Assembly (NCBI GenBank): GCA_903789535.1
Contig: CAIFES010000003.1
Coordinates: forward strand, 1-64,000
Direction: 5' to 3'
Length of the DNA stretch: 64,000 bases
Source of the DNA: an uncultured Aeriscardovia sp.
GTDB taxonomy: Bacteria > Actinomycetota > Actinomycetes > Actinomycetales > Bifidobacteriaceae
In this document: positions 3,275-21,564 of the stretch, in pieces
Layout of the letters: each line of letters starts with the position of its first letter
How positions within the stretch are numbered: position 1 is the stretch's first letter
Translations under genes and position numbers: made by a program
Notes under the pieces: generated by a model
Told to the model about the DNA's origin: nothing
The model's input: only the letters and a program-made list of their open reading frames with translations
Databases searched by the model: none

Positions 3275-4771
3275 GTGGCTAGCACGCAGAACAAGACGAC
3301 ACAAAAGCCTGGTTTTGCCGACCAGAGACCCGGTTCCGTCCGTCAGAGGCACGATTCCGGCCATCAGAATCGGCCATCGCGCTCGCGTGCCGCGCGGCTA
3401 CGCTCTCGGCTGCTCGCCGTCGCCTTCTCAGACCGCTGGTCGGGCGTCGTCATGCTCGTCTTCGCCCTCCTCGGTCTGGTGATCGCCAATCTGCCCATTG
3501 TGGGGCAGGGGTTCCTCCGTCTTGCCGAATTCCACATCCCAATCCCGCTCACCGATATCAATCTGTCCGTCTCCGACTGGATGCAGGACGGTCTGCTCAC
3601 CCTGTTCTTCCTCGTCGTCGGCCTCGATCTCAAACGTGAGCTGACGACCGGCTCGCTGTCAAACCCAAAGCGCGCTGCCGTGCCGATGATCGCCGCCGTG
3701 GGCGGGATGCTTATGCCGATGGCCGTCTACCTCGGCGTGGTCGAGCTGCTCAAGGAAGGCGGCGACCCCGCCGTGACCGCGCAGGTGATGGGTGGATGGG
3801 CCGTCCCCACCGCCACCGACATCGCCTTCTCCCTGGCCGTTCTCGCGATCTTCTCAAAAGGTCTGCCGACTGAGATCCACTCGTTTCTGCTCACCCTCGC
3901 CACGGTGGACGATCTGCTCGGCATTCTGCTTATCGCATTCGTTTTCACCTCCGTCAACGAGTGGTACTGGTTTGTGTTCATGGTGATGCTCCTGCTCGTG
4001 TGGGCGTGGCTGTGCCGGCTCAAAAAGGTGCCGTGGGTGGTCGTGGCCGTGCTCGCGGTGCTCATGTGGGCGATGACGTATGAGGCAGGCATCCATCCCA
4101 CGCTCGCCGGTGTGATGTTCGGGCTGATGGTGCCGGCAAAAAGGATGCATGGGGAGCGACAGTCACGCGCGAGGCGCTGGTCGGACAGGCTGCAACCGTA
4201 TTCGGCACTCATCGCCCTGCCACTGTTCGCGCTGTTTGCCACGGCGATCCCGCTGGGCGGTTTCGGCTGGTCGGTGTTCACCCAGCCGGTGATGCTCGGC
4301 ATCCTCGCCGCGCTCGTCATCGGCAAGCCTCTGGGGGTGATGGCTGCCTCGTGGATCTGCGTGCACGTGTTCCACCTGGAACTCGCCGGGGGCCTCAAGA
4401 TCCGTGACCTGATCGGCATGGCGTGCGCGTGCGGCATCGGTTTCACCGTTTCGTTCCTGATCGCTTCGCTCGCCTTCCGCGGGGGCATGTTCATCGAGGA
4501 GGCGCGGCTGGCCGTGCTGGTGGGCTCGTTCCTCTCGATGATCGTGGCGGCGATCGTCTTGCGCATCCAGTCCGCGCACCCACGCAAGCGCTGGCAGACC
4601 GCTGCCGAGTGGCGCGAGGCGAAGAAAGTCGCCGGGGCGATGGCGGCCAAAGAGGATCCGAGTGGCAAAGCCAGCATCCCGGCAAGGATGGGCAGGAAGG
4701 CTGGAGCTGTGCCCCATGTCGCAGCGAAAGAACCTGCATCGCGGCGGGAGAATGAGTCTTCTCGGATATGA
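3275..4771 (+). CDS. nhaA: Na+/H+ antiporter NhaA
   Basis: A 498-residue inner-membrane antiporter that exchanges internal Na+ for external H+ and supports pH and salt homeostasis. The protein has about a dozen hydrophobic segments between residues 57 and 430. The family hallmarks are present: GWAVPTATDIAFSLAVLAI (around residues 175-193) and ATVDDLLGI (around 210), the latter carrying the paired aspartates of the ion-binding site. A basic, low-complexity N-terminal tail of about 45 residues and a charged C-terminal tail of about 60 residues extend it beyond the usual length of about 390. The start is the GTG at 3275, preceded by GGGGAAGGG. It sits between CRISPR array 1 and cas3 on the same strand, which is unusual company; no functional link to immunity is suggested. 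Confidence 0.93.
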   Translation: MASTQNKTTQKPGFADQRPGSVRQRHDSGHQNRPSRSRAARLRSRLLAVAFSDRWSGVVMLVFALLGLVIANLPIVGQGFLRLAEFHIPIPLTDINLSVSDWMQDGLLTLFFLVVGLDLKRELTTGSLSNPKRAAVPMIAAVGGMLMPMAVYLGVVELLKEGGDPAVTAQVMGGWAVPTATDIAFSLAVLAIFSKGLPTEIHSFLLTLATVDDLLGILLIAFVFTSVNEWYWFVFMVMLLLVWAWLCRLKKVPWVVVAVLAVLMWAMTYEAGIHPTLAGVMFGLMVPAKRMHGERQSRARRWSDRLQPYSALIALPLFALFATAIPLGGFGWSVFTQPVMLGILAALVIGKPLGVMAASWICVHVFHLELAGGLKIRDLIGMACACGIGFTVSFLIASLAFRGGMFIEEARLAVLVGSFLSMIVAAIVLRIQSAHPRKRWQTAAEWREAKKVAGAMAAKEDPSGKASIPARMGRKAGAVPHVAAKEPASRRENESSRI

Positions 4772-4895
4772 AAGGTTAGGGTCGACAATATGCCTCCGGC
4801 GGCCATAACGGGCGGACTTCTGCCACCCGCGTGATCGGCAATCGGGCAATCCCCATCGCCGTCTTTCCTGTGTCGGCGTGTTCTACGCTGGGCGT

Positions 4896-7800
4896 ATGGG
4901 ATCTGTCGCGTTGAGTGGGCCGGCACGCCGCTTGTGGGGAAAATCAGACAGGGCGGAGAACGCATACTGGCTGCCGCTGTATGTCCACCTTTCCGATGCA
5001 GGACATGTGGCCGGCTACTTGTGGGATCAGTGGGTCCCGGAGGGCACGCGATCTGTCATCGCCAAAGAATTTGGTGATCCGGACGGTGAGCAGGCGCAGA
5101 AACGTGCCCGGCAGTTGCTCGTCTTTTTGGCATCGGTCCACGATATCGGCAAGGCGACGCCGGTCTTTCAGTCCCAGCCCACGACGCATGTGGGCGAGCA
5201 TCGGGATGAGTCGTTGTCGGACGATGCTTATTTGCGTCTGTTCCGTCCCGAGTCAGAGGGTGGTGCGGGTTTTCTCTGCTCGCAGGGTCTGCAACCCAAT
5301 CATCCGCCGCATGCCGTTGCCGGGCAGATTCTGCTGGAAAAGTATCTGGAACAGGCTGGTTTTCCTGCAGGTGATGAGATTTCTGGGCGGCAGGCACGTG
5401 GCAATAAGGCGTTGAGGAGACAGATCCGAGAGTCTCTCGTCTGCATCGTGGGCGGGCATCATGGCTGTGAGCCGCTATGGAAGAATGTCAACGCCGTGAA
5501 AACGGATCCCTATACGCTTGATGCCATTGCCGAGACTCGATCAGAGCAGCAGGACAGTCGTACAATGACGCTGCGCGATAGGCGTGACATTGATGCGTCC
5601 ATTGATGCGCCTGACTACTGCGCACCGTGGCGGCAGGCGCGTCAAGAGCTGATCGGATGGGCGATGGAGACGTCCGGTTTTGACTTCTCACGGCCATGGT
5701 CGTATCCGCTGAGTGTCCAGTCGCAGATCCTGCTGACGGGACTCGTCATCATGGCTGATTGGATCGCCTCCGACCAGGATATTTTCCCTCTTGTCCCGCT
5801 TGAGAAGAGCGGCACCGCCGTCCGACAACAAGCGGGTCTATTGCCAGACAACCGAGGCTTAGGTTCTGTGGATGGGCGCGGCACGGGCTGCCCGAATTCT
5901 GTGCAGGAACTGGATGTGCTCGATCTGACGACCGACGAGGGGCTGAAAAGACGTGCCGAATGCGCATGGAAAGCGCTAGGCTTCGAATCCCCGTGGAAGG
6001 ATCCCGAGCAACACCAGACGGCCGAAGAGCTGTTCGGCAAACGGTTCGATCTTCCCGAGGGCGCACATCTGCGTCCGGTCCAAAAGGCGGCTGTGGAGGC
6101 GGTGTTGCAGGCGAAGGACCCGCGTCTGCTCGTGATCGAGGCGCCGATGGGCGAGGGCAAGACGGAGGCGGCGCTCGCCGCCGCCGAGGTGCTCGCGCGC
6201 CGCGCCGGCAGGGGAGGCGTGTGCGTCGCCCTGCCGACGAGGGCGACGACCGACGCGATGTTCTCCCGCGTCGTCTCCTGGCTGCATCATCTGCCGGCGG
6301 TCGAAGATCAGGACGGAAACCTGAGCAAGACCGTCTATCTGGCCCATCAGAACGCCTCCCTCAACCAGCAGTTCGCGCGTATTGCCGGCTTCTCTCACAG
6401 GATTCATGAGCAGATCCGGGAAAATCCTGAGATTTCTTCCATTGCAGAGGATGAGGAGAACGAACGCCGGGCAAATGGGCAGGGAGCCGCCCATCGATGG
6501 GGAGGGCAGTCCAGGAAGAACCTCTCCCAGCAGGTCGTCGCCTCCGATTGGATGTGGGGACGCAAGAAAGGTGTGCTGTCGAATTTTGTCGTCTGCACTG
6601 TTGATCAGGTACTGATGGCGTCGCTGCAGATGAAGCATTCCGTGCTGCGTGACCTCGCGCTCGCCAACAAGGTGGTCGTCATCGACGAATGCCATGCCTG
6701 TGACTCGTATATGCGCTGCTATCTCGGGCGTGCGCTCGAATGGCTCGGCAGCTGCGGCGCGCCGGTCGTGCTGCTGTCCGCCACGCTGCCGGCAGGGATG
6801 CGGGACGCGTACATCTGTGCGTATCGCACAGGCTATTGCGCCTATCAGGCGATCGGACTGACGCAGGGGCAGGCGCGGTCCGTCTATCAGCCGAAAGACT
6901 ATGAGATACCCGATGAGCCGACAGCCCGTGACGGCTATCCTCTGATCACGCTTCTTGATGGGGATACTGTTCGTTATCGGGCGACTCAGCCTGCGGGCTC
7001 GCGCACGGTACGCGTGCGGGCAAGCCTGATGGGCGACAGCCAGCAGGAGCTGCTTGCGCAGGTTTCCTCGCTCGTCGGCAATGGGGGATGCTTGGGAGTC
7101 ATCTGTGACACGGTCCGTCGTGCGCAGGAGGCCTATGACACGCTGAAGAACAGCGGCCGCTTTGCTGCCGATGAGATCCGTCTGGTGCATGCGCGCTTCA
7201 TCAATGTGGATCGTATGCAGAAAGGAAACGAGCTCAGAGTGCTGCTCGGACCGGACGCGGCCGTCGTCGGCACACACGGGAGAAAACCGATCCGGCCGAA
7301 ACGGCTCATCGTGGTCGGCACACAGGTACTCGAGCAATCGCTGGACATCGACTTTGACGCCCTCATCACCGATATCGCACCGGTCGATCTCCTCTTCCAG
7401 CGGCTCGGGCGCGTCCATCGTCATCATCGGGGCGAGGGCGAAAGCGAGCGGCCGGAAAATCTGCGTGTGCCGATCTGCAAAATCCGCGGTATCGGGGATT
7501 GGGACGATGGCCTGCCGTTGTTCGAGCCGCCGAAAGCAGGAAGAGATGCCGCCCGTCACCAGTTCGCCTTCTCCGGCATCGCGTGGGACACGAAAGAGGC
7601 CAAAGGCGTTTATCCGAGCGCGTCGCTGTATGAGGCGCTCGCCGTTGTTGGGCTCACCGTGCCGGACGCGGTGGTCGAGCTTCATCTTCCAACAGATATC
7701 GCTCCTGATGTGCGCTGCGCGTATAGCCAGAAACATAAAGAGGCGATCATCCCGCAACGATGGCAAGGTGATTATGAGCTTGCCGCCCAGGCACGAAAGG

Positions 7801-8420
7801 ACCATGACGCACAGGAAGAGCGGAAGGCACAGGGATTCCTCGCCGCCAGTTACGCGGATCTGTCTCGGCGGTTGCAGACGGTGATGAAGGGCAACAGGCG
7901 CGATGTGAATACGACGGACGAGGATGAGATGATCCGTGCCGTGCGTGACACCCCCGAGCAGCTGACGGTGCTGGTGCTCCGGGCCGGAATAGAAGACGGT
8001 GAGAAAGTCATCCGTCTCCTGCCGTGGCTCGGCGGCGGCCATGATGGTCTGCCGGGGGTGCGGGGCGGTGAGGACGGCATGCACGTTCCCACGGGTCCTG
8101 CCGTCGAAGGCGGGGAGGATCTGCCTGACGATCTGGCACAGCTCGTGGTGCAGTGCGCGGTCACCCTGCCGCGAAACTGGAGGGTCCCCGTCGCTGACCT
8201 GACGGCGGCGTTCGAACGGGCTGACGGCCAGATCATCTTCGGATGGCAGCAGAACCGATTCCTTGCCGGACAACTGCCGCTGTTCGTCAATGCCGATGGT
8301 CGCGGGTCCCTGCGGGTCGAGAGACAAGACGGAAAGTCAGTCGATCTGGAGTTCTCCTATACGCGTGAGCGCGGGCTGGAGATGACCACCGTCGGCACCG
8401 AAACGCCGGTGATGGGATAG
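4896..8420 (+). CDS. cas3: CRISPR-associated helicase/nuclease Cas3 (type I-E)
   Basis: Cas3 is recruited by target-bound Cascade, and nicks and degrades the displaced strand. This protein of about 1174 residues has an N-terminal HD nuclease domain (HDIGKATP near residue 85; HHGCEP near residue 190) and a superfamily 2 helicase core with Walker A (EAPMGEGKT, near 415), a DECH box (VVIDECHA, near 595), the SATLP motif and a QRLGRVHRH arginine-finger motif. The ATG at 4896 was chosen; a GTG 18 bp upstream is also in frame, and neither has a strong ribosome binding site. The gene ends at 8420, directly before a crRNA-like element. The remaining cas genes start 230 bp further on, so cas3 is probably transcribed apart from the Cascade operon. 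Confidence 0.96.
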   Translation: MGSVALSGPARRLWGKSDRAENAYWLPLYVHLSDAGHVAGYLWDQWVPEGTRSVIAKEFGDPDGEQAQKRARQLLVFLASVHDIGKATPVFQSQPTTHVGEHRDESLSDDAYLRLFRPESEGGAGFLCSQGLQPNHPPHAVAGQILLEKYLEQAGFPAGDEISGRQARGNKALRRQIRESLVCIVGGHHGCEPLWKNVNAVKTDPYTLDAIAETRSEQQDSRTMTLRDRRDIDASIDAPDYCAPWRQARQELIGWAMETSGFDFSRPWSYPLSVQSQILLTGLVIMADWIASDQDIFPLVPLEKSGTAVRQQAGLLPDNRGLGSVDGRGTGCPNSVQELDVLDLTTDEGLKRRAECAWKALGFESPWKDPEQHQTAEELFGKRFDLPEGAHLRPVQKAAVEAVLQAKDPRLLVIEAPMGEGKTEAALAAAEVLARRAGRGGVCVALPTRATTDAMFSRVVSWLHHLPAVEDQDGNLSKTVYLAHQNASLNQQFARIAGFSHRIHEQIRENPEISSIAEDEENERRANGQGAAHRWGGQSRKNLSQQVVASDWMWGRKKGVLSNFVVCTVDQVLMASLQMKHSVLRDLALANKVVVIDECHACDSYMRCYLGRALEWLGSCGAPVVLLSATLPAGMRDAYICAYRTGYCAYQAIGLTQGQARSVYQPKDYEIPDEPTARDGYPLITLLDGDTVRYRATQPAGSRTVRVRASLMGDSQQELLAQVSSLVGNGGCLGVICDTVRRAQEAYDTLKNSGRFAADEIRLVHARFINVDRMQKGNELRVLLGPDAAVVGTHGRKPIRPKRLIVVGTQVLEQSLDIDFDALITDIAPVDLLFQRLGRVHRHHRGEGESERPENLRVPICKIRGIGDWDDGLPLFEPPKAGRDAARHQFAFSGIAWDTKEAKGVYPSASLYEALAVVGLTVPDAVVELHLPTDIAPDVRCAYSQKHKEAIIPQRWQGDYELAAQARKDHDAQEERKAQGFLAASYADLSRRLQTVMKGNRRDVNTTDEDEMIRAVRDTPEQLTVLVLRAGIEDGEKVIRLLPWLGGGHDGLPGVRGGEDGMHVPTGPAVEGGEDLPDDLAQLVVQCAVTLPRNWRVPVADLTAAFERADGQIIFGWQQNRFLAGQLPLFVNADGRGSLRVERQDGKSVDLEFSYTRERGLEMTTVGTETPVMG

Positions 8421-8421
8421 T
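8413..8421 (+). promoter_or_regulatory. putative extended -10 of the crRNA-like gene creR1
   Basis: The bases TGGGATAGT overlap the cas3 stop codon and fit an extended -10 (TG, one base, GATAGT). The second crRNA-like unit has TGCGATAAT in the corresponding place (21178-21186). The distance from hexamer start to the degenerate first repeat is 37 bp here and 34 bp there. The parallel placement is the main support; no convincing -35 was found. Confidence 0.45.
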
Positions 8422-8427
8422 GTTGGA

Positions 8428-8534
8428 GTGTCGGCATCGTCCGCAGTGCCGTCAAATCCCTGAAATAGCAGGGATGATCCAGGGCGCAGTCTTATGGCGG
8501 AGTGCTCCTCGCATATCGCATATTAGCGAGGATG
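8428..8534 (+). ncRNA. crRNA-like regulatory RNA upstream of cas8e (CreR-like)
   Basis: A two-repeat mini-array outside the CRISPRs. The first pseudo-repeat (8453-8480) is 28 nt long like the true repeats. It keeps the handle ATGATCC exactly and replaces the hairpin with ATCCCTG-AAATAG-CAGGGAT, a perfect 7-bp stem. The spacer (8481-8501) is 21 nt, exactly 12 nt shorter than the 33-nt array spacers. The second pseudo-repeat begins at 8502 (GTGCTCCTCGC), pairs CCTCGC with GCGAGG at 8526-8531 across a longer loop, and has lost its handle. That is what a mature I-E crRNA needs: a 5' handle from repeat 1 and a 3' hairpin from repeat 2. The spacer matches the site at 8536-8549 next to an AA PAM. 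The likely role is Cascade-guided repression of the cas8e operon. Transcript ends are estimates. Confidence 0.8.
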
Positions 8535-8551
8535 TAGACTACGCCCCTTGG
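8532..8551 (-). promoter_or_regulatory. operator targeted by creR1, over the cas8e promoter
   Basis: On the reverse strand this site reads CCAA, one base, GGGCG, T, AGTCT. With AA (8549-8548) as PAM, the creR1 spacer matches at positions 2-6 (GGGCG) and 8-12 (AGTCT). It mismatches at position 1 and at position 7; position 7 is the sixth base after the first and is flipped out in I-E R-loops. Matching stops after position 12. The + strand reads ATGTAGACTACGCCCCTTGG; the site before the 37-aa peptide gene has the same ATGTAGACT-N7-TTGG frame. It lies about 11-30 bp upstream of the putative -10 at 8562-8567, so a bound complex would cover the -35 region. Confidence 0.75.
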
Positions 8552-8558
8552 AAATTCG

Positions 8559-8567
8559 TGCTAAGGT
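8559..8567 (+). promoter_or_regulatory. putative extended -10 promoter of the cas8e operon
   Basis: TGCTAAGGT matches an extended -10 of the TGn-TAnnnT type common in actinobacteria. Transcription would begin near 8574, giving a leader of about 75 nt before the cas8e ATG. The -35 region falls within the creR1 target site. An alternative hexamer (TATATA at 8576-8581) exists, so the exact start is uncertain. Confidence 0.45.
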
Positions 8568-8581
8568 TATCCATGTATATA

Positions 8582-8633
8582 GAAATCCCCGAATAGGATT
8601 TCCTCACCTCCCACATCCGGCATCGACGCCGGA
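8582..8633 (+). promoter_or_regulatory. two hairpins in the cas8e 5' leader
   Basis: GAAATCC pairs with GGATTTC (8582-8588 with 8596-8602, 7-nt loop), and TCCGGC pairs with GCCGGA (8616-8621 with 8628-8633, 6-nt loop). Both stems are perfect and lie between the presumed transcription start and the ATG at 8651. No T-run follows, so they are not simple terminators. They may affect stability or translation of the Cascade mRNA. Confidence 0.5.
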
Positions 8634-8650
8634 GAAAGTGTGATACGCAC

Positions 8651-10495
8651 ATGGAGGATTCACTCAACAACAAGCATGGCCTGGGCGGAGCGCCTCCGTC
8701 GTTCAGTGCTGTCGATGGTCCGTGGATATCGGTGCTCATGATGGACGGCAGCCATCAGACGCTCTCTATCCGTGGGGTGTTTCATCATGCGTCGGAGATC
8801 CGTTCCATTTCCACGGAATTCTCGCAGGAACAGCTTCCGATACTCCGTATCCTGCTTGCCGTTTTGTACCGGGCTTTTGCGCATACCGATCAGAACGGGG
8901 AGCACGTCGACGAATGGGGCAGTGACCCGTTCGACGATCATCCGGTCATCGATTTGTGGTCCACCATTTACCGCAGCCATCATTTTCCCCTCGAGGTGAT
9001 CGACGCCTATCTCGACTCGATTCCCGGAGGCGCGGATCTTTTTGACCCGCACCGGCCGTTCTTCCAGACGCCGGGACTGCAGTATGCCAATGCTGACAAG
9101 CAGTCGCCGATCTCGCAGCACATTCCTGATGTGCCGGACAAGGAGGGCAAATTCCTCTTCTCCACACGGTCGAAGAACTCCCTCGGCCCCGCCGGCCTCG
9201 CTGAGGCCACGCGTATCCTCGTGTTTCAGCAAGCGTATGACGTCTCCGGCATCCACAGTGCCGTCAAAGGCAGCAAGACGGCCAAGCATGGCAAAGAATA
9301 CGCGCCCAAGGGGCTGATCGGCACGGGGTATCTCGGGGCGATCGGCGGCGTGTTCAACCAGGGCAACAATCTCTTCGAGACGCTCATGCTCAACTGGGTC
9401 CTCATCGGGCCGGACGAATCCGGTCAGGACCGGTGCCTTCTTGGCGTCGAGGGGGATCTCGCGCCGTGGGATGATGGCTATGACGTGTCCGACACGCAGA
9501 TGGTCACCGATCACATATGCACCGGGCCGGTGGACGCGCTCACATGGCAGACGCGTCGTCTGCGGCTTGTGCCATCCAAGGACGGCGAACATGTGGACGG
9601 TCTCATCATCACTTACGGCAATGTGGCGCAGGTGCTCAACGCCGACACCACCGAGATGATGACCGCCTGGCGCGAGAGCAAACAGCAGCTCAAACGCCAT
9701 CCCGAGCTTCCCTATGCGCTCATGCCAGTCTGGCATGATCCCGACAAGTATCTGTGGCAGGGCCTGCCAAACCTCCTCGGAAAGGTCGAGCAGTCTGACA
9801 GCAGCGGCAACAGTCTCGCACCGGGCGTGGTCCAATGGATCGACCGTCTGCAGGACGAGCTGGATGACTCTCCAGTGCCTGATGTCGTCACGCTGCACGC
9901 CCAGGGGATCGTCTACGGTGCCCAGAGCGCCGTCATCGAGACCGGCGTGGATGACAGCATCCAGCTGGACAGGCGCATCCTCGATCTTGGGTCCGATACC
10001 ACCAACGCGGTCGTCCAGATCGTCGGGAAGGCCCAAGAGTGCATCCAGTCGTACAAAATTTTCCTGCAGGATCTTGCCATCGCCCGTGGGGATGACCCAA
10101 AGGACGTGGACCAACACATCGGCATCTCGCTTCAGCCTGTCTATGTGGCGCTCGACAAGGTGTTCCGCGACCATCTGAGGGTCATCGATCCGAAGGAATC
10201 GTTGTCGAGTATCAAACAGGCGTGGTGCGAGGACATCCATCGGACGCTGCTCAATGCGGCGCGCGATGAATTGCACACGGCACCGGCGCCGGCCTTCGGC
10301 GAGCATACGTTCGCACAGGGCAAGCTCAAGGGGCAGGTCGCCACGTCCGCCCGTGCCTGGAGCGTGCTCTCAACGCTGCTCTGGAGGACTCTCGGGCCGT
10401 TGCCGCACTCTGATGAGGATATGGCCGGATACGTCGTTCCACAGCAGATGAACGACAAGAATAAGAAGGAGGCCATCGATGGCGATGACGAATGA
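8651..10495 (+). CDS. cas8e: Cascade large subunit Cas8e (Cse1/CasA)
   Basis: The 614-residue large subunit of Cascade, which reads the PAM and helps recruit Cas3. The N-terminal region (residues about 15-60) and the segment NQGNNLFETLMLN (near residue 237) resemble the Cse1 family, as does its position as the first gene of the Cascade operon. The length is somewhat above the E. coli protein (about 500). The ATG at 8651 follows a 5' leader with two hairpins; the nearest purine-rich stretch (CGGAGAAAG) is rather distant, so translation initiation may be weak or controlled. It overlaps cse2 by 17 bp, which indicates coupled translation. The operon promoter lies beside a crRNA-like gene whose target overlaps it. 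Confidence 0.93.
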   Translation: MEDSLNNKHGLGGAPPSFSAVDGPWISVLMMDGSHQTLSIRGVFHHASEIRSISTEFSQEQLPILRILLAVLYRAFAHTDQNGEHVDEWGSDPFDDHPVIDLWSTIYRSHHFPLEVIDAYLDSIPGGADLFDPHRPFFQTPGLQYANADKQSPISQHIPDVPDKEGKFLFSTRSKNSLGPAGLAEATRILVFQQAYDVSGIHSAVKGSKTAKHGKEYAPKGLIGTGYLGAIGGVFNQGNNLFETLMLNWVLIGPDESGQDRCLLGVEGDLAPWDDGYDVSDTQMVTDHICTGPVDALTWQTRRLRLVPSKDGEHVDGLIITYGNVAQVLNADTTEMMTAWRESKQQLKRHPELPYALMPVWHDPDKYLWQGLPNLLGKVEQSDSSGNSLAPGVVQWIDRLQDELDDSPVPDVVTLHAQGIVYGAQSAVIETGVDDSIQLDRRILDLGSDTTNAVVQIVGKAQECIQSYKIFLQDLAIARGDDPKDVDQHIGISLQPVYVALDKVFRDHLRVIDPKESLSSIKQAWCEDIHRTLLNAARDELHTAPAPAFGEHTFAQGKLKGQVATSARAWSVLSTLLWRTLGPLPHSDEDMAGYVVPQQMNDKNKKEAIDGDDE

Positions 10496-11240
10496 TGTCC
10501 CCGCCGGCTCGTCAAAGCCGGCGCATGTGTCAATCGACCAGAAGCTCAGGGAGCTGTCTCATTTCGTGACGGCCAAAGTTGCGGGGCTTGACAAGGGTCT
10601 CGAGAAGGGAGACACCCAGACCCGTGCGCGGCTTGCCCGTCTGCGCCGCAGCGGTGCGGGGGATGATCGTTCATGGATGCTCGTCGGCGATGACCTCTTC
10701 GACAGCAGTCTCGGGGGAGTCGCCTGGAATGTCGACGTTCTCGGCAAGCCCGAACGATATCCCGAACGGCCTAACCCCTATTTCAACGCAGCGCTCGTGG
10801 CCCTGCAGTTTTATGCCCTGCACCGGCAGTCCCATTCATCGGATGTGAATACGACAGACACGCATGCGAGCTTCGGCTGGGCGTGCAGCTGGATCGGCAA
10901 ACCTTCGATGCATCATTCTGGTGTCGGCAAAAAGGATATCGATGAGCAGCAGCAGGAGCAGCAGACGGGTGACGCCGGGCCGCAGGCCGGCGTGCGGCGA
11001 CGTCTGTATGCCATGGAGCGCGCTGTCGATTTTCCGTCATTGCTGGTCTATATGCGTGGTCTCGTCAGCATGCTCGAGACAAAAGACGGTCATCCGATTC
11101 CCCTCAACTACAGCGTTTTGGTGAAGGATCTCTATCGTCTTCAGTCCCCTGATTGGCGTGAGGGCGTGTTCAGGCGGTGGTCACAGGACTTTTATTCGCC
11201 GCACAAGTCAGGCGATCAGAAGGAGGATACGGATCAGTGA
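10479..11240 (+). CDS. cse2: Cascade small subunit Cse2 (CasB, Cas11)
   Basis: A 253-residue small subunit of Cascade, present as a dimer along the belly of the complex where it stabilises the R-loop. The call rests on position between cas8e and cas7e, a charged mostly helical composition, and family-like stretches such as RARLARLRRSGAG (residues about 42-54). It is longer than E. coli Cse2 (about 160 residues), with an insertion near residue 155 that includes a glutamine-rich run (DEQQQEQQ). The ATG at 10479 overlaps the end of cas8e and has AAGGAGG upstream. A gap of about 150 bp separates it from cas7e. Confidence 0.9.
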   Translation: MAMTNDVPAGSSKPAHVSIDQKLRELSHFVTAKVAGLDKGLEKGDTQTRARLARLRRSGAGDDRSWMLVGDDLFDSSLGGVAWNVDVLGKPERYPERPNPYFNAALVALQFYALHRQSHSSDVNTTDTHASFGWACSWIGKPSMHHSGVGKKDIDEQQQEQQTGDAGPQAGVRRRLYAMERAVDFPSLLVYMRGLVSMLETKDGHPIPLNYSVLVKDLYRLQSPDWREGVFRRWSQDFYSPHKSGDQKEDTDQ

Positions 11241-11393
11241 TCTTCGCATTCACATCGAGGATCGTATTTTCTCTTTGATATTTCTTCCGAGGAACGTGAC
11301 GCCCCTCGTCGCCGGGTATCGCTGTTGTATCACGCCACAAGGCGACCGCAATCAAAAAATTACCGACCAAATCATTGTCACAAGGAGATCATG

Positions 11394-12545
11394 ATGTCGA
11401 TCTATTTCAACTTTTATGCCTTGCAGAACATGCCACCGAACAACGTCAACCGTGACGACACCGGTAGCCCGAAGATGGCCCCCTACGGGGGTGTGATGCG
11501 CTCGCGGGTCTCAAGTCAGGCGCAGAAGCATGCCATGCGGCTGTATTTCAAAGACCATTTCAAGGGTGACAACCTCGGCGTTCGGACCAAGAAGGCCGTC
11601 TCGCTGATCGCAGATCGCATCTCGGCTAAAAGGCCTGATCTGGCAGACAAAGCTGAGCACTATGCCCAGATGGCCCTCGAGGCGACTGACATCAAGACGG
11701 GCAAATCGACCCGCAAGGGCGTTGATGAAGGTTCGATCGTCACCTCCTACCTGGTATTCATCGCCAATTCAGAGCTCGACGGTCTCGCAGATCTGGCGAT
11801 CAGCTGGGCGGATGCAGGCGCCGACAAGGCTGATGCGGCGATGAAGAAGGAAGCCAAAAAGGTCTTCCATGGCACACAGGCCATCGATATCGCGCTTTTC
11901 GGTCGTATGCTCGCCGATGCTGCGGAACTGAACACGGATGCCTCCGCACAAGTGGCGCATGCGATCTCGGTGGACGCGGTCTCGCAGGAGTTCGATTACT
12001 TCACCGCCGTGGACGATGAGGCGCCGAAGGACAATGCCGGTGCGGGCATGATCGGGACGGTCCCGTTCACCTCCTCCACGCTGTATCGATATGCGGATGT
12101 GAATGCCACTGCCCTTGTAGGCCAGCTCGGCAGTGTGGACGCGGCTGCCCGCGCTATCTCCGGATTTGCCGACGCCTTCTTCAAGTCGATGCCGACCGGC
12201 AAGCAGACCACTTTCGCCAACCGCACGCTTCCTGAAGTCTGCTTTGTGACAATTCGCGAGGATCAGCCGGTCAATCTTGCGGACGCCTACGAGAAACCGG
12301 TCCGCGCGACGAAGGAGAATTCGGTGACCGAAAACGCTGCGCGGCGTCTCGGCAAAAGGGAGAAGGAGCTGGATGAGGCTTATGATGTCAAGCCTGTTGC
12401 CGCCTTCAACGTTACGGTAGGCGATCCGGTCGCCGAGCTTGACGCGGTCAGCGAGCATGTCACTTTCTCCTCGCTGAGCAAGAACCTTGCCAGCACGGCC
12501 TTGCAGCTACTGGGCCAGCACAACGTCAGCGGGGCGGAGGACTGA
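11394..12545 (+). CDS. cas7e: Cascade backbone subunit Cas7e (Cse4/CasC)
   Basis: A 383-residue RNA-binding backbone protein, normally six copies per Cascade, each covering a 6-nt segment of the crRNA spacer. Seen directly: the N-terminal strand IYFNFYALQNMPPNNVNRDD and the motif RSRVSSQAQKHAMR near residue 45, both typical of Cas7e. AAGGAG at 11382-11387 serves two adjacent ATGs at 11391 and 11394; the second has the better spacing. The 6-nt footprint matters here, because the two crRNA-like spacers in this window are shorter than array spacers by exactly two such segments. The gene is followed at once by cas5e. Confidence 0.95.
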   Translation: MSIYFNFYALQNMPPNNVNRDDTGSPKMAPYGGVMRSRVSSQAQKHAMRLYFKDHFKGDNLGVRTKKAVSLIADRISAKRPDLADKAEHYAQMALEATDIKTGKSTRKGVDEGSIVTSYLVFIANSELDGLADLAISWADAGADKADAAMKKEAKKVFHGTQAIDIALFGRMLADAAELNTDASAQVAHAISVDAVSQEFDYFTAVDDEAPKDNAGAGMIGTVPFTSSTLYRYADVNATALVGQLGSVDAAARAISGFADAFFKSMPTGKQTTFANRTLPEVCFVTIREDQPVNLADAYEKPVRATKENSVTENAARRLGKREKELDEAYDVKPVAAFNVTVGDPVAELDAVSEHVTFSSLSKNLASTALQLLGQHNVSGAED

Positions 12546-12546
12546 G

Positions 12547-13371
12547 ATGGCGGTGCTGTTGCTCTCTCTGAGAGGGCCATACCAGTCTTGGGGGCTCGCC
12601 TCCAGGTTCTCGCGCAGGGACACCAACCGTATGCCTACGAAGAGCGCCGTGCTGGGACTTCTGGCAAGTGCACAGGGACGTACCCGTGAGGATCCCATCG
12701 AGGATTTCGCCGGGCTGCGTTTTGCCGTCCGTGCAGACCAGCCAGGCGTTCTCGTCCGGGATTTCCAGACGGAGCGACCGCTCGACTGGCAGACCAATGC
12801 GAAAAGCATCGAGATGCCGATCACCCAGCGGTTCTACCTCTGTGACGCAGCTTTCCTTGTGGCGCTCTCGGCGCAAGGGAAGGAAGGCCTGGCGCTGCTC
12901 AAAGGCTTGCGTCATGCAGTAAGCAAGCCTGTGTGGCCTCTCTATCTCGGGCGCCGATCCTGCCCGCCGTCGCCTCCTGTGAAGACACGGTTGTTGGAGA
13001 ATGTCTCCGACCCGGTGGAGGTCCTCCGGCACGAGCCATGGATCGCCTCAGATACTTATCGCCATCGGCATCAGCATGATATCGAGAGCGGTCGGATTCG
13101 TTTCCTTGACATCAGTGCAGATGCTGATCTGCAGACTAGCACTGATGACCCGAACCAGATCCTCGATTCCGTTGACCCCGACCAGCCGCTGAGCTTCTCG
13201 GTACGGCATCGGCGATACGCGGCGCGTCGTGTGATCCACACATCTGTCGCGCTCGAGGATCTCGACGATGCCCCGCAGGCTGTCGGCGGCCAGGATTCGA
13301 ACCGGTCTGGCCATTCATCGGATGGGGCGTCACCGGCATTCACTGATGACGACGATCCGATGGGATTCTGA
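12547..13371 (+). CDS. cas5e: Cascade subunit Cas5e (CasD)
   Basis: A 274-residue RAMP protein that caps the 5' handle of the crRNA in Cascade. The N-terminus MAVLLLSLRGPYQSWGLASR and the following RRDTNRMPTKSAVLGLLASAQGR are characteristic of Cas5e. The ATG at 12547 follows GGAGGACTGAG and lies 1 bp after the cas7e stop. The C-terminal 45 residues (ending near SPAFTDDDDPMGF) are acidic, low in complexity and probably disordered. Nine bases separate it from cas6e, so the two are co-transcribed. Confidence 0.94.
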   Translation: MAVLLLSLRGPYQSWGLASRFSRRDTNRMPTKSAVLGLLASAQGRTREDPIEDFAGLRFAVRADQPGVLVRDFQTERPLDWQTNAKSIEMPITQRFYLCDAAFLVALSAQGKEGLALLKGLRHAVSKPVWPLYLGRRSCPPSPPVKTRLLENVSDPVEVLRHEPWIASDTYRHRHQHDIESGRIRFLDISADADLQTSTDDPNQILDSVDPDQPLSFSVRHRRYAARRVIHTSVALEDLDDAPQAVGGQDSNRSGHSSDGASPAFTDDDDPMGF

Positions 13372-13380
13372 GGAGGCGAT

Positions 13381-14109
13381 ATGTATATCTCACGTATCCC
13401 GCTCAACACCGCGCGGTATGAAGGGCGACGGCTTGTGGCCTCCCCGTATCGTCTTCACGGTGCCGTGGAGAAGTCGTTCGCCCCGGGGGTGCCGCGCTCG
13501 GATGAGTCAGGCAGGATCCTCTGGCGTCTCGATACCGCCAATGACGGCAAGGAACTGTGGCTGTATGTGGTCAGTCCCGTGCAGCCCGATTTCTCGCACA
13601 TCATCGAACAGGCTGGCTGGGCAAACGGGGGAGAACAGCAAACGAAGGATTATGAACGTCTGCTCTCCCGTATAGCGCTGGGACAGCACTGGCGGTTCAG
13701 ACTGAGGGCAAACACCGTCAGGGCAGCACTGACAGATCGGTTCAAATACGAGATCCATCAGGATCCCGCGATCGCAGCCGCCCGTGAAAAGGGCGGACGC
13801 GGGCACCTGAAGGGGGATGCGACCGCCGGGTACCAGCTCAAATGGCTCAAGAAGCGCAGTGCGACGAACGGTTTCGCCCTCCTGCCTTCCCCTGATGTTC
13901 CTTCTGAGCCCGCCTGCCTCGTCAGCCAGCGACGGACGGAGCGATTCCGCAAATACGGCGATCCCCATCCCGTGACACTGACCACCTGCCAGTTCGATGG
14001 CATGCTCGAAGTGACGGATGTTGATTTGTTCGAGCACGTTCTGCGCTTTGGCATCGGCCGTGGCCGCGGCTTCGGCTGTGGTCTGATGACTATCGCGCCT
14101 ATCCGATAA
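13381..14109 (+). CDS. cas6e: crRNA-processing endonuclease Cas6e (Cse3/CasE)
   Basis: A 242-residue endoribonuclease that cuts pre-crRNA at the base of the repeat hairpin and stays bound to the 3' hairpin. The start MYISRIPLNTARYEGRRLVASPYRLHGAVE matches the family, including a histidine near residue 26 in the usual catalytic position, and the protein ends with the glycine-rich loop FGIGRGRGFGCGLM. It should also process the two crRNA-like RNAs outside the arrays, whose hairpins keep 5-7 bp stems. GGAGGCG precedes the ATG. The gene is followed by a strong hairpin that probably ends the Cascade operon. Confidence 0.94.
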   Translation: MYISRIPLNTARYEGRRLVASPYRLHGAVEKSFAPGVPRSDESGRILWRLDTANDGKELWLYVVSPVQPDFSHIIEQAGWANGGEQQTKDYERLLSRIALGQHWRFRLRANTVRAALTDRFKYEIHQDPAIAAAREKGGRGHLKGDATAGYQLKWLKKRSATNGFALLPSPDVPSEPACLVSQRRTERFRKYGDPHPVTLTTCQFDGMLEVTDVDLFEHVLRFGIGRGRGFGCGLMTIAPIR

Positions 14110-14116
14110 GGCGGAA

Positions 14117-14146
14117 GGCGGTCTGGCCTAGATTGGTCAGGCCGCC
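14117..14146 (+). terminator. hairpin ending the Cascade operon
   Basis: GGCGGTCTGGCC (14117-14128) pairs with GGTCAGGCCGCC (14135-14146) over 12 bp with two G-U pairs and a 6-nt loop. Only a modest T-rich stretch follows (TCATTTGTCC), so termination may be incomplete. It separates the Cascade genes from cas1e-cas2e. Confidence 0.6.
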
Positions 14147-14285
14147 TCATTTGTCCCATCGTGTTTGTCTTATTCTGTCGCATTTCGGGGTGGTCTATCC
14201 GCGATGGTCTGAGAGTCCCGTGATTGGGACCGGCATGGTGACAGCCACAGATCGTGATTGTGACTAGTTGGATGGGAGGTTCTCA

Positions 14286-15359
14286 ATGGTGAGGACGATG
14301 CCTGACTCGGCGATCAAAGGGCCGGGCCGCGGATTTGAGAAGAACGCCGGTGCCGCCCCGCCCGATGTCTGGGAGCTGCCGCGCGCCGAGGACCGGCTGT
14401 CTTTCGTCTATTTCGAGCATGCCAGGATCGACCGCGAGGACAACGCGATCACCGCCGTCAGCCAGCAGGGGACGATCGCGGTTCCTGCCGCGCAGCTGGG
14501 CGTGCTGCTGCTCGGTCCGGGAACGACGCTCACCCAGGCGGCGATGCGTGTCATCGGTGACAATGGTGCCACGGTCGTCTGGGTCGGGGAGCACGGTGTC
14601 CGCTTCTATGCCTCAGGCAGTCCTCTCACGCATTCCTCGGCGCTGCTGCAGCGGCAGGCGTACCTGGTCAGCAGGCGTAAGACCAGGCTTGCCGTGGCCA
14701 GACGCATGTATGAGATGCGTTTTCCCGGCGAGAATTTCGCCCATAAGACCCTCCGCCAGCTACGCGGTATGGAAGGCGCCCGAGTACGGGGTATCTATCG
14801 TCAGATGTCCCAGAAGACCGGCGTCATCTGGGATCGCAGAGACTATAACCCGCTCGATTTTGATGATTCGGATGACATCAACAAGGCGCTTTCAGCTGCC
14901 AACACCTGTCTATATGGCGTCTGTCATGCCGTCATCGTCGCCCTGGGATGCTCGCCCGGCCTCGGATTCATCCATGTGGGCCACGAGCGCTCTTTCGTGT
15001 ACGACATCGCGGATCTGTATAAAGCGCAGACGACGATACCGGTCGCCTTCGAGATCACGGCCCAGCATCCGGATAACCTTGAGTCCGCTGTCCGCACAGC
15101 CATGAGGGATCGATTTTATGATCTGACGCTGTTGCAGAAAATTGTCTCAGACATCCATGCGCTGCTGTCAAAGCCTGTGAGTGGGCAGTCGAGTGACGAA
15201 CAGTCAACGGATCCGGGTTCGGTCATATCGCCAGAGGCCGCCGATGACGGCTCGGTGATACCGGATGGGGATTTCTATGACGGCGATGATCTTCGTCTCT
15301 GGGATCCTGATGGTGACGTGGCGGCAGGAAAGTCGTACAGGGAAGAGGAGAAGCAATGA
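14286..15359 (+). CDS. cas1e: CRISPR adaptation integrase Cas1e
   Basis: A 357-residue spacer-integration nuclease that acts with Cas2e. The metal-binding residues of the family can be placed: glutamate in RGMEGARVRG (near residue 163), histidine in GFIHVGHERSFVYDIADLYK (near 236) and aspartate in the same stretch. The ATG at 14286 follows GGGAGG. The last 60 residues are an acidic extension not needed in E. coli Cas1. It overlaps cas2e by 4 bp. A 176-bp gap with a terminator-like hairpin separates it from cas6e, so adaptation genes probably have their own promoter and may escape the creR1 switch. Confidence 0.95.
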   Translation: MVRTMPDSAIKGPGRGFEKNAGAAPPDVWELPRAEDRLSFVYFEHARIDREDNAITAVSQQGTIAVPAAQLGVLLLGPGTTLTQAAMRVIGDNGATVVWVGEHGVRFYASGSPLTHSSALLQRQAYLVSRRKTRLAVARRMYEMRFPGENFAHKTLRQLRGMEGARVRGIYRQMSQKTGVIWDRRDYNPLDFDDSDDINKALSAANTCLYGVCHAVIVALGCSPGLGFIHVGHERSFVYDIADLYKAQTTIPVAFEITAQHPDNLESAVRTAMRDRFYDLTLLQKIVSDIHALLSKPVSGQSSDEQSTDPGSVISPEAADDGSVIPDGDFYDGDDLRLWDPDGDVAAGKSYREEEKQ

Positions 15360-15742
15360 TGATGGTCCTCTCGCTGACCGCATGCCCGATCGGTCTGCGC
15401 GGCGATCTGTCGCGCTGGCTCTTCGAAATCTCGCCGGGCGTGTTTGTAGGAAACGTCACGGCGCGCGTCCGTGAGGCGTTGTGGCAGCGTGTTCTCGGGG
15501 AAGCGAAGAGCGGCCGGGCGGTGATGGTGTATTCCATGCGCAATGAACAGCATCTGGCATTCAGAACGTTCCGCTCAGATTGGCAGACGGTTGATTGTGA
15601 TGGACTCGAACTTGTCCGCAAACCGAATGATGAGGATACCAATCCGTTGCGCGGATGGCATTCCGGTGCGCTGCGACCAGGCTGGTCCAATGCGAGCAGA
15701 TGGCACAAAGCGCGGTATTACGACGCGAAAAGAAAGAGATAA
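15356..15742 (+). CDS. cas2e: CRISPR adaptation protein Cas2e
   Basis: A 128-residue partner of Cas1e; the Cas1-Cas2 complex sets spacer length and docks at the leader. The sequence MMMVLSLTACPIGLRGDLSRW and the later GVFVGNVTARVREALWQRV are typical of the I-E (CasB-like) Cas2 subgroup. Three in-frame ATGs occur at 15356, 15359 and 15362, served by GAAGAGGAGAAG; the first overlaps the cas1e stop. A basic tail (RYYDAKRKR) follows a region beyond the usual core of about 95 residues. Array 2 begins 300 bp downstream on the same strand. Confidence 0.95.
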   Translation: MMMVLSLTACPIGLRGDLSRWLFEISPGVFVGNVTARVREALWQRVLGEAKSGRAVMVYSMRNEQHLAFRTFRSDWQTVDCDGLELVRKPNDEDTNPLRGWHSGALRPGWSNASRWHKARYYDAKRKR

Positions 15743-19712: not shown

Positions 19713-20312
19713 TCATGCGTTGTTTTCCTTGGCGTACAGCCGCCGCAGTGCGCGTCGCAGCAAGACTTCCTCTGCCGAATCCGAGATTTTCAGAAGTGTC
19801 GCCAGCGCTTCGATATTGCCGGCGGCCTCTGTGGCGATCAGCGTCCGATCGTGACGCGGGTAATCGAGGTATTGGCGATGCTGGGCAGCGAGCAACTGGA
19901 GAAAGAGACGGGTGGATCGTCCGTTGCCCTCGCGGAAGGGGTGGAGATAATTCAGCGCATCCAGCAGCCGTGCGTAGTCCAGAGCGGTCAGTTTCTCTTT
20001 TGGCAGTTTGCTGATCAGCGTGTCGCAATAGTGCCGTCCGTCGTCGATCTTTTCAGACAGCATGAATTGCGTGTCGCCTTTTGCCAGTTCGTAGTCCCTG
20101 ATTGTTCCTGCCCAATCGTAAAGGGAGCCGAAAAGAAATAGATGGATCTGCACCAACTGCTTGGTCGAATTAATGCGGACGGGATGTTCAAGCAGATAGA
20201 TCGAGCGACGGGCGGTGAGCAGATGCTCGTATCGGGCGAGCTGCGCCGCGTCGGTGATGCCGAGCCTGTTGCGCAAAGTGCCGTTGGGATAGGTGTCGTC
20301 GCTGTTGTTCAT
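19713..20312 (-). CDS. Fic-domain protein, probable toxin of a TA pair
   Basis: A 199-residue Fic protein; the family transfers AMP or related groups from nucleotides onto target hydroxyls. The core motif HPFREGNGRSTR (residues about 123-134) holds the catalytic histidine and the GNGR nucleotide loop. No inhibitory helix with the S/T-x-x-x-E-G/N motif is evident in the protein itself, so control in trans is likely. Upstream on the same strand lies an HTH protein whose C-terminus resembles a Fic antitoxin, separated by 135 bp. The pair follows the old end of CRISPR array 2. The ATG at 20312 was chosen as the first in frame. Confidence 0.85.
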   Translation of the reverse strand: MNNSDDTYPNGTLRNRLGITDAAQLARYEHLLTARRSIYLLEHPVRINSTKQLVQIHLFLFGSLYDWAGTIRDYELAKGDTQFMLSEKIDDGRHYCDTLISKLPKEKLTALDYARLLDALNYLHPFREGNGRSTRLFLQLLAAQHRQYLDYPRHDRTLIATEAAGNIEALATLLKISDSAEEVLLRRALRRLYAKENNA

Positions 20313-20447: not shown

Positions 20448-20897
20448 TCAGCGATCTGTCGGCTTGCTTTTGACAGTATTGTTTTGCGTGGTGAAAATAC
20501 GACGATAATCGGCAGCGATCTCCGGATCTGGGTTACGGGCGGCGTCAACGAGGCGGAGGATGTCCTCGCGCGAAGGCTGCCATCCTTCCAGCTCTTCATT
20601 GATGACCGCGAATTTGACCGTGCGATACTCGGCCATATCGGTAATATGGACACCTTGGATGGTCTGGGTCCCGTCGTCGATGTCGAGTTTGTAGCTGTCG
20701 TGCTGCAGCAGGATCAGCAGATCCGAGGGGCGCATATGAAGCCCCTTCGCGGCACCATTGAGAATCTTTATGCTCCACGATTGGACGGGACGGTCGAACG
20801 CGGAGGAGAGGGTGCTTGTCGTGATGCCGCTCGCATCGCTTATCTGGGAGAGGGTCAGATGGTTGCGCTCAAGAATGGATTTGATCGGTTCTTGCAT
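20448..20897 (-). CDS. HTH regulator with Fic-antitoxin-like C-terminus
   Basis: A 149-residue protein with an N-terminal helix-turn-helix (ILERNHLTLSQISDASGITTSTLSSAF, residues about 8-34). Its C-terminal stretch FAVINEELEGWQPSREDILRLV resembles the inhibitory helix of Fic antitoxins, with LEG followed by a second helix. The usual serine or threonine four residues before the glutamate is an asparagine here, so inhibition by this helix is inferred only. GGATGG precedes the ATG at 20897. A perfect 10-bp inverted repeat sits 22 bp upstream and is a good autoregulatory operator. It is the first gene of an operon with the Fic gene. Confidence 0.75.
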   Translation of the reverse strand: MQEPIKSILERNHLTLSQISDASGITTSTLSSAFDRPVQSWSIKILNGAAKGLHMRPSDLLILLQHDSYKLDIDDGTQTIQGVHITDMAEYRTVKFAVINEELEGWQPSREDILRLVDAARNPDPEIAADYRRIFTTQNNTVKSKPTDR

Positions 20898-21112: not shown

Positions 21113-21177
21113 GAATTGTTATTGCTGTTCCGGTTTTTTCAGTGCAATTCGTGTGCGCTCGGCAATGCGTTTGAGTG

Positions 21178-21186
21178 TGCGATAAT
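21178..21186 (+). promoter_or_regulatory. extended -10 promoter of the crRNA-like antitoxin gene
   Basis: TGCGATAAT is a strong extended -10 (TG, one base, GATAAT). Transcription would begin near 21193, about 22 nt before the first pseudo-repeat. It parallels TGGGATAGT upstream of creR1. Confidence 0.55.
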
Positions 21187-21192
21187 AAATAA

Positions 21193-21290
21193 GACGGTAT
21201 CTTCCGCTGTACTGTCAGTTCCCTGAAATTTAGGGATGATCCGATGGAAAGTCTGAGGGCGGATTGATCCCCGCGATTTAGCGGGGTTGC
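21193..21290 (+). ncRNA. crRNA-like antitoxin RNA (CreA-like)
   Basis: The second mini-array outside the CRISPRs. The first pseudo-repeat (21215-21242) keeps the ATGATCC handle and a TCCCT/AGGGA stem, and shares GTCA-N2-TCCCTGAAAT with creR1. The spacer (21243-21263) is 21 nt, exactly as in creR1, and shares the internal AGTCT and the terminal GGCGGA with it; the first seven bases differ. The second pseudo-repeat keeps a perfect CCCCGC-GATTTA-GCGGGG hairpin but not the handle. The spacer matches the reverse strand at 21398-21408 beside an AA PAM, over the putative promoter of a 37-aa peptide gene. I infer a Cascade-dependent repressor RNA. Transcript ends are estimates. Confidence 0.8.
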
Positions 21291-21301
21291 GGACTTCCAT
21301 T

Positions 21302-21336
21302 ATTTTCCAAATTTTATTGATTTTCCAATTTTATTG
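21302..21336. repeat. AT-rich direct repeat upstream of the peptide promoter
   Basis: ATTTTCCAAATTTTATTG (21302-21319) is followed at once by ATTTTCCAATTTTATTG (21320-21336), one A shorter. The surrounding 60 bp are far richer in A and T than the rest of the window. It may act as an UP-like element or a protein site for the downstream promoter. Confidence 0.6.
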
Positions 21337-21393: not shown

Positions 21394-21413
21394 ATGTAGA
21401 CTGTCCATGTTGG
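21394..21413 (-). promoter_or_regulatory. operator targeted by the CreA-like RNA
   Basis: On the reverse strand the site reads CCAA, C, ATGGA, C, AGTCT. With AA (21411-21410) as PAM, the spacer matches positions 2-6 (ATGGA) and 8-12 (AGTCT), mismatches at positions 1 and 7, and diverges from 13 on. This is the same pattern as creR1 and its target. The + strand, ATGTAGACTGTCCATGTTGG, shares ATGTAGACT-N7-TTGG with the cas8e operator. The -35 region of the promoter whose -10 lies at 21421-21426 falls inside it. Confidence 0.75.
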
Positions 21414-21420
21414 CTGGATG

Positions 21421-21426
21421 TATATT
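21421..21426 (+). promoter_or_regulatory. putative -10 of the 37-aa peptide gene
   Basis: TATATT differs from TATAAT at one base. A start near 21433 would leave a short leader with GGAGG at 21441-21445 before the ATG at 21451. The -35 region falls inside the operator. Confidence 0.5.
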
Positions 21427-21450: not shown

Positions 21451-21564
21451 ATGATTCATCTTACTGAACTGGTGAAGGCTTTTGGGCAATTAGGAGTGGA
21501 TTGGGGTCTCTTTCTTCTCTGCCTAATTGTCTTGGTGAGCAAGCTGAGAAAGCCCAAAAACTGA
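21451..21564 (+). CDS. 37-aa membrane peptide, putative Cascade-repressed toxin (CreT-like)
   Basis: A 37-residue ORF with a strong ribosome binding site (GGAGG, 5 bases before the ATG). Residues about 17-32 (DWGLFLLCLIVLVSKL) form one hydrophobic segment and the C-terminus is basic (KLRKPKN), the build of small membrane-active toxins such as those of type I TA systems. No sequence family is recognised. Its putative promoter overlaps a site matched by the adjacent crRNA-like RNA, in the same way that creR1 matches the cas8e promoter. By analogy with CreTA modules, I infer that Cascade plus the RNA keeps the gene silent and that loss of Cascade derepresses it. Toxicity is not shown by the sequence. 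Confidence 0.65.
   Translation: MIHLTELVKAFGQLGVDWGLFLLCLIVLVSKLRKPKN

What the first reader, a model, noticed from the sequence alone, without database searches (positions are those of the whole stretch)
8413..8567. A crRNA-like gene between cas3 and cas8e that targets the cas8e operon promoter
Seen: a degenerate two-repeat unit with conserved handle, 21-nt spacer and a target 35 bp after the spacer end. The target has an AA PAM and matches at spacer positions 2-6 (GGGCG) and 8-12 (AGTCT); the mismatch at position 7 is at the base that I-E crRNAs flip out. The site overlaps the -35 region of an extended -10 (TGCTAAGGT). Known: CreR RNAs use partial matches to let Cascade repress cas genes without cleavage. 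Inferred: negative feedback on Cascade supply that also senses crRNA load and anti-CRISPRs.
Basis: partly seen in the sequence, partly recalled or inferred. Interest (0 to 1): 0.94.

Follow-up and report, generated by a model that had tools for sequence, protein, structure and literature searches.

The report
crRNA-like brake on the cas8e promoter
Between two CRISPR genes this bacterium carries a tiny imitation CRISPR unit whose RNA very probably guides the Cascade complex back to its own promoter to limit its supply; this kind of feedback is already known, but here it is conserved and constantly re-evolving across a whole bacterial family and has a second copy aimed at a toxin-like gene.

Summary
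At 8457-8534 lies a two-repeat mini-CRISPR with the array handle (ATGATCC) and a 21-nt spacer. Its seed (positions 1-5 and 7-11, mismatch at 6) has one AA-PAM match in the 1.6-Mb genome: 8536-8549 (-), in the cas8e promoter region. Eighteen Bifidobacteriaceae genomes carry the unit; with two extra units that makes 20, with 17 different seeds. In 19 of 20 the target has an AA PAM, and seed and target change together. Mismatches concentrate at positions 6, 12 and 18 and matching stops at 20: the Cascade footprint. In ten relatives the PAM's AA is the TT of the -35 box. Three related genomes have the target in direct orientation, so an RNA hairpin is not the cause. Best explanation: CreR, a crRNA-like RNA guiding Cascade to repress the cas8e operon without cleavage. 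CreR is already reported for type I-E, so this is a new member of a known kind. Also found: a paralogous unit at 21220-21287 aimed at the promoter of a 37-aa hydrophobic, toxin-like ORF, resembling CreTA. Repression, RNA processing and sensing were not tested.

The parts
4878..8420 (+). cas3, upstream neighbour; its stop codon overlaps the inferred creR promoter
   Evidence: Pfam Cas3_HD, Cas3-like_C_2, Cas3_C
8392..8421 (+). inferred creR promoter: TCGGCA, 18 nt, extended -10 TGGGATAGT; the second unit has the same TCGGCA and a TGCGATAAT
   Evidence: read from sequence by comparison with the promoter-like hit TCGGCA-16-GATAAT at 21159-21186; inference
8457..8480 (+). first degenerate repeat: stem TCCCTG/CAGGGA and handle ATGATCC (8474-8480)
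   Evidence: repeat family D3; handle identical to array handles
8481..8501 (+). 21-nt spacer; position 0 = 8481, seed positions 1-5 = 8482-8486, position 6 = 8487, positions 7-11 = 8488-8492
8502..8534 (+). second degenerate repeat: GTGCTCC plus hairpin TCCTCGC/GCGAGGA (3' handle)
   Evidence: a GTGYTCC-like start lies 21-23 nt after the handle in the relatives
8536..8549 (-). Cascade target: PAM AAG (8547-8549) and seed protospacer GGGCGTAGTCT (8536-8546); a 20-nt protospacer would reach 8527
   Evidence: unique in the genome; chance tests
8548..8567 (+). cas8e promoter region: TTGGAA at the place of the relatives' -35 box, and extended -10 TGCTAAGGT (8559-8567)
   Evidence: relatives have TTGACA-like, 17 bp, TATnnT at this place; no consensus hit in the window itself
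8651..10495 (+). cas8e (cse1), first gene of the regulated operon cas8e-cse2-cas7-cas5-cas6e-cas1-cas2
   Evidence: TIGR02547 and the other type I-E subunits
21220..21287 (+). second, paralogous crRNA-like unit: TCCCTGAAATTTAGGGATGATCC, 21-nt spacer 21243-21263, second repeat with CCCCGC/GCGGGG hairpin
   Evidence: alignment score to creR 88 against a shuffle maximum of 42
21398..21411 (-). target of the second unit, AAC-ATGGA-c-AGTCT, overlapping the -35 TAGACT of a promoter-like site at 21397-21426
21451..21564 (+). 37-aa ORF with AGGAGG ribosome site and one hydrophobic stretch; candidate Cascade-repressed toxin
   Evidence: no Pfam match

Best explanation
The unit is a creR gene. Its transcript is cut by Cas6e at the two degenerate repeats and loaded into the type I-E Cascade as a short-guide crRNA (shown: repeats, handle, 21-nt spacer; inferred: processing and loading). 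The complex recognises the AA PAM and pairs through positions 1-5 and 7-11 with the promoter of cas8e (shown: unique match, conservation, covariation). It blocks RNA polymerase there and represses the Cascade operon; because the R-loop is short, Cas3 does not destroy the chromosome (both inferred from published CreA and CreR work). Repression falls when Cascade is scarce, drawn off by the roughly 90 array crRNAs, or disabled by an anti-CRISPR, so Cascade supply rises again (inferred).
For: A complete type I-E operon sits next to it. The handle equals the array handle and the target is unique in the genome. 18 genomes carry the unit; 20 units in all have 17 distinct seeds, and 19 have an AA PAM. 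A scan of 0.7 Mb of cas neighbourhoods found 17 units against 0.25 expected by control. With one position left out when choosing the site, positions 1-5 and 7-11 still match in 80-100% of units, but position 6 in only 42%. Positions 12 and 18 also dip (18 of 40 against 96 of 140, p = 0.009), and matching falls to background after position 20, the spacer end. The array PAM agrees: spacer 18756-18788 matches a phage contig next to AA. The unit lies by the operon promoter wherever that is: before cas8e in most genomes, upstream of cas3 in three and probably a fourth. The same 1-5/7-11 seed is required experimentally for CreA (PMC8501985).
Against: No expression, RNA or binding data. The window's own promoter is not a consensus sigma-70 promoter. 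Thirteen of 20 units match their target at 15 or more of the 17 pairing positions of the short spacer; in other I-E systems truncated guides may still allow slow cleavage (PMC7296934), so limited complementarity alone does not explain protection from self-cleavage in those genomes. Several relatives lack a detectable unit (G067 and others), so it is not essential.
Confidence: 0.88

Rival explanations
1. The spacer and target pair as RNA: the intergenic transcript folds into a long hairpin that acts as an attenuator or structured leader, and the crRNA look is incidental.
For: In the window and most relatives the target is inverted relative to the spacer, so the same bases can pair in RNA, and several sequences fold that way.
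Against: Three related genomes (G180, G189, G177) have the target in direct orientation, where no hairpin can form. The AA PAM, the 6-nt mismatch period, the stop at position 20 and the array-like handle are not expected of a hairpin. In most relatives the target lies at or upstream of the -35 box, so it is outside the cas8e transcript made from that promoter.
Confidence: 0.05
2. CreTA rather than CreR: the targeted promoter drives a hidden small toxin between 8570 and 8650, as in Citrobacter rodentium where the cas3-casA gap holds creTA.
For: Known type I-E precedent at the same place (PMC12055562). A 7-codon frame ATG TAT ATA GAA ATC CCC GAA TAG starts at 8573.
Against: By inspection no such frame is shared: the relatives' promoters run straight into a short leader and the cas8e start. 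The frame has no ribosome site.
Confidence: 0.05
3. Remnant of a decaying CRISPR array with a chance match to the nearby promoter.
For: Repeats are degenerate, and full arrays flank the operon.
Against: Seed and target co-vary over 17 seeds; the spacer is 21-23 nt in every unit against 33 in the arrays; chance of the match is small.
Confidence: 0.01

Closest known systems
CreR, cas-regulating RNAs (Liu et al. 2023, Cell Host Microbe, doi 10.1016/j.chom.2023.08.005; paper itself not held, read through PMC13131331 and PMC12737573)
   Same: crRNA-like RNA from a mini-CRISPR with partial complementarity to the cas promoter; reported for types I-B, I-E and V-A
   Different: Found here in Bifidobacteriaceae; in most members the PAM's AA is the TT of the -35 box; the spacer is shorter than array spacers by about two 6-nt steps; most members have near-complete complementarity over the short spacer. 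Whether Liu et al. listed this family could not be checked.
CreTA (Cascade-repressed toxin with CreA guide), types I-B and I-E (PMC8501985, PMC9458426, PMC12055562)
   Same: Two degenerate repeats, conserved 5' handle, seed 1-5 and 7-11, target at the promoter with a PAM next to it
   Different: The 8.4-kb unit targets cas8e, not a toxin. The 21.2-kb paralogue does target a small ORF and fits CreTA, but toxicity is untested.
scaRNA of Francisella (Cas9-guided repression)
   Same: Degenerate-repeat RNA redirecting a CRISPR effector to repress host transcription (as described in PMC9458426)
   Different: Type II, different target and guide architecture

Membership tests
CreR | Ectopic unit of two degenerate repeats around a spacer, outside arrays | tested here: met
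CreR | 5' handle of the co-occurring CRISPR preserved | tested here: met
   ATGATCC in the unit and in 69 of 70 array repeats checked
CreR | Partial, PAM-adjacent seed complementarity to a cas promoter | tested here: met
   the window's own promoter boxes are inferred
CreR | Linked type I-B, I-E or V-A effector genes | tested here: met
   complete type I-E set
CreR | Cascade-dependent repression of cas expression, relieved by crRNA load or anti-CRISPR | not testable with these tools
   needs expression data
CreTA (for the 8.4-kb unit) | Targeted promoter drives a toxin | tested here: not met
   promoter lies before cas8e in the window and most relatives; no shared small ORF seen by inspection
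CreTA (for the 21.2-kb unit) | crRNA-like guide with seed match to the promoter of a small toxin | tested here: inconclusive
   guide and unique target met; 37-aa hydrophobic ORF; toxicity untested
RNA hairpin leader | Spacer and target inverted in all members | tested here: not met
   direct orientation in G180, G189, G177

The most novel reading that the evidence does not exclude
In this family guide truncation (21-23 nt instead of 33, about two Cas7 steps fewer), rather than limited complementarity, is what keeps Cascade from calling Cas3, since 13 of 20 units match their target at 15 or more of the 17 pairing positions. The same unit has also been duplicated in this genome and retargeted to a toxin-like gene, showing the birth of a CreTA from a CreR (or the reverse) within one locus.
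Probability: 0.35. Interest if true: 0.68.

Novelty: new member of a known kind. Interest (0 to 1): 0.57.

Why it matters
It adds a family-wide case of Cascade regulating its own supply, with many independent seed-operator pairs that act as natural compensatory mutants. The paralogue beside it makes the evolutionary step between cas autoregulation and a CRISPR addiction module directly testable, and the near-complete short guides ask how type I-E separates repression from cleavage.

Tried and rejected
Rfam search gave nothing. The protein scan of genome contigs found only one distant cas8e. Spacer searches in viral contigs gave no usable PAM: one 20-mer hit two contigs, but neither matched the spacer over 33 nt within 7 mismatches, and two other patterns had no hit. 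The Gordonia phage hit is not a convincing protospacer. Nine other isolated GGGATGATCC sites in the genome, read by eye, showed no mini-CRISPR structure. Considered and rejected: RNA hairpin, decayed array, hidden toxin before cas8e. Ascertainment bias at position 6 was checked by the leave-one-out test. Twenty further regions in front of mostly more distant cas8e genes gave only two more units.

Full report
What is there. The window holds a complete type I-E system: cas3 (4878-8420), then cas8e, cse2, cas7, cas5, cas6e, cas1 and cas2 (8651-15742), with arrays on both sides. In the 230-bp gap between cas3 and cas8e lies a two-repeat unit: stem TCCCTG/CAGGGA and handle ATGATCC (8457-8480), a 21-nt spacer (8481-8501) and a second repeat-like hairpin (8502-8534). 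Positions 1-5 and 7-11 of the spacer match the minus strand at 8536-8546, next to PAM AAG, with a mismatch at position 6. The pattern occurs once in 1.6 Mb.

Conservation. cas8e was sought in 189 genomes of the family, and the regions in front of it, then larger cas neighbourhoods, were read in the right orientation. Eighteen genomes, this one included, carry the unit. Its seed differs from genome to genome (17 distinct seeds in 20 units, counting two extra units) and the target differs with it. Scanning 0.7 Mb for an isolated handle plus an AA-PAM seed match within 350 bp gave 17 units; shuffled spacers gave 0.25. Each of the first 13 units taken alone has a simulated chance of 0.8% or less.

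Geometry. Counting matches over 20 units at positions 1 to 20 gives 20, 19, 20, 20, 19, 8, 20, 20, 16, 19, 19, 8, 18, 14, 10, 12, 12, 10, 15, 15, then 3, 4, 6. The site was first chosen without position 6, so the test was repeated leaving out each position in turn: 93-100% at 1-5, 42% at 6, 80-100% at 7-11. Positions 12 and 18, not used in choosing, are also low. Every sixth base is unpaired in Cascade, and positions 6 and 12 were shown to be free in CreA, whose repression needs exactly 1-5 and 7-11 (PMC8501985). Matching ends where the short spacer ends. The PAM is AA in 19 of 20 (AGC in G017), and the single clear phage protospacer of the arrays also follows AA. Not all 20 units are independent: G070 and G103 share a spacer, and G180, G189 and G177 share a seed.

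Promoter logic. In ten relatives whose target lies downstream of the unit and in front of cas8e (G002, G113, G132, G133, G119, G070, G080, G103, G066, and G024 with two small ORFs before cas8e), the PAM's AA is read from the TT of a -35 box such as TTGACA, with a -10 box about 17 bp on. In G130 the box begins a few bases beyond the PAM. In G017 and G191 the target lies just behind the -10 of a promoter in front of the unit. In G180, G189 and G177 the unit sits upstream of cas3 and the target is in direct orientation; G099 probably has a divergent version of this. So the unit sits where the operon promoter is. In the window the promoter is less canonical: extended -10 TGCTAAGGT with the target over its -35 region, no consensus hit. 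These box readings are by inspection; no start site was mapped.

How it works. The best reading is CreR: Cas6e processing, Cascade loading, PAM and seed recognition at the promoter, and repression without Cas3 cleavage. Presence, conservation and geometry are shown. Processing, repression and sensing are inferred from published work (PMC13131331, PMC12737573; the primary paper, Liu et al. 2023, is not held). Guides of 21-24 nt repress without cleavage in a type I-B system (PMC10989794). In type I-E, spacers 6 or 12 nt shorter still permit slow cleavage (PMC7296934), so the 13 units with 15 or more of 17 pairs pose an open question; the window's own unit stops at position 11 and does not.

A second unit. 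At 21220-21287 there is a paralogue of the first (alignment score 88, shuffle maximum 42). Its seed ATGGA-AGTCT has one exact AA-PAM match in the genome, at 21398-21411, over the -35 of a promoter-like site in front of a 37-aa ORF with a ribosome site and a hydrophobic stretch. No convincing relative of the ORF was found in the family. This resembles CreTA; type I-E CreTA with a small translated toxin is known in Citrobacter (PMC12055562). In G133 a further unit faces a promoter before two ORFs that look HicB-like by eye; that was not tested with a profile search.

Novelty. CreR of type I-E is reported, so this is a new member of a known kind. No paper in the held library mentions CreR together with Bifidobacterium, but most subscription papers are not held, so priority could not be established.

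Noticed in passing
window 21220-21287, target 21398-21411 (-), ORF 21451-21564: Second crRNA-like unit, paralogous to the first, with a unique exact seed target at the promoter of a 37-aa hydrophobic ORF; looks like a CreTA addiction module.
   Followed up: partly
window 21291-21302: Directly behind the second unit lies a near-copy of its target (GGACTTCCAT) lacking one base, perhaps a vestige of the original operator.
   Followed up: no
L081, handle at 5581: G133 has an extra unit, about 17.6 kb from cas8e, with a full seed match at a promoter in front of two ORFs that look HicB-like by eye; a possible Cascade-controlled toxin-antitoxin operon.
   Followed up: partly
L095, handle at 7524 (minus strand): In G024 two small ORFs (one DUF2442-like by eye) sit between the targeted promoter and cas8e.
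   Followed up: no
L015 against L014: G067 appears to have lost the unit together with the -35 region present in its close relative G130: a natural deletion.
   Followed up: no
window 8618-8640 and relatives: The cas8e leader has a small hairpin (CCGGC/GCCGG) just before the ribosome site; similar hairpins recur at this place in several relatives.
   Followed up: partly
window 19713-20312 (-): Fic/DOC family protein close to the second unit, with an HTH-like protein at 20448-20897 (-).
   Followed up: partly
window 3275-4771: A Na+/H+ antiporter gene sits between the first array and cas3.
   Followed up: no
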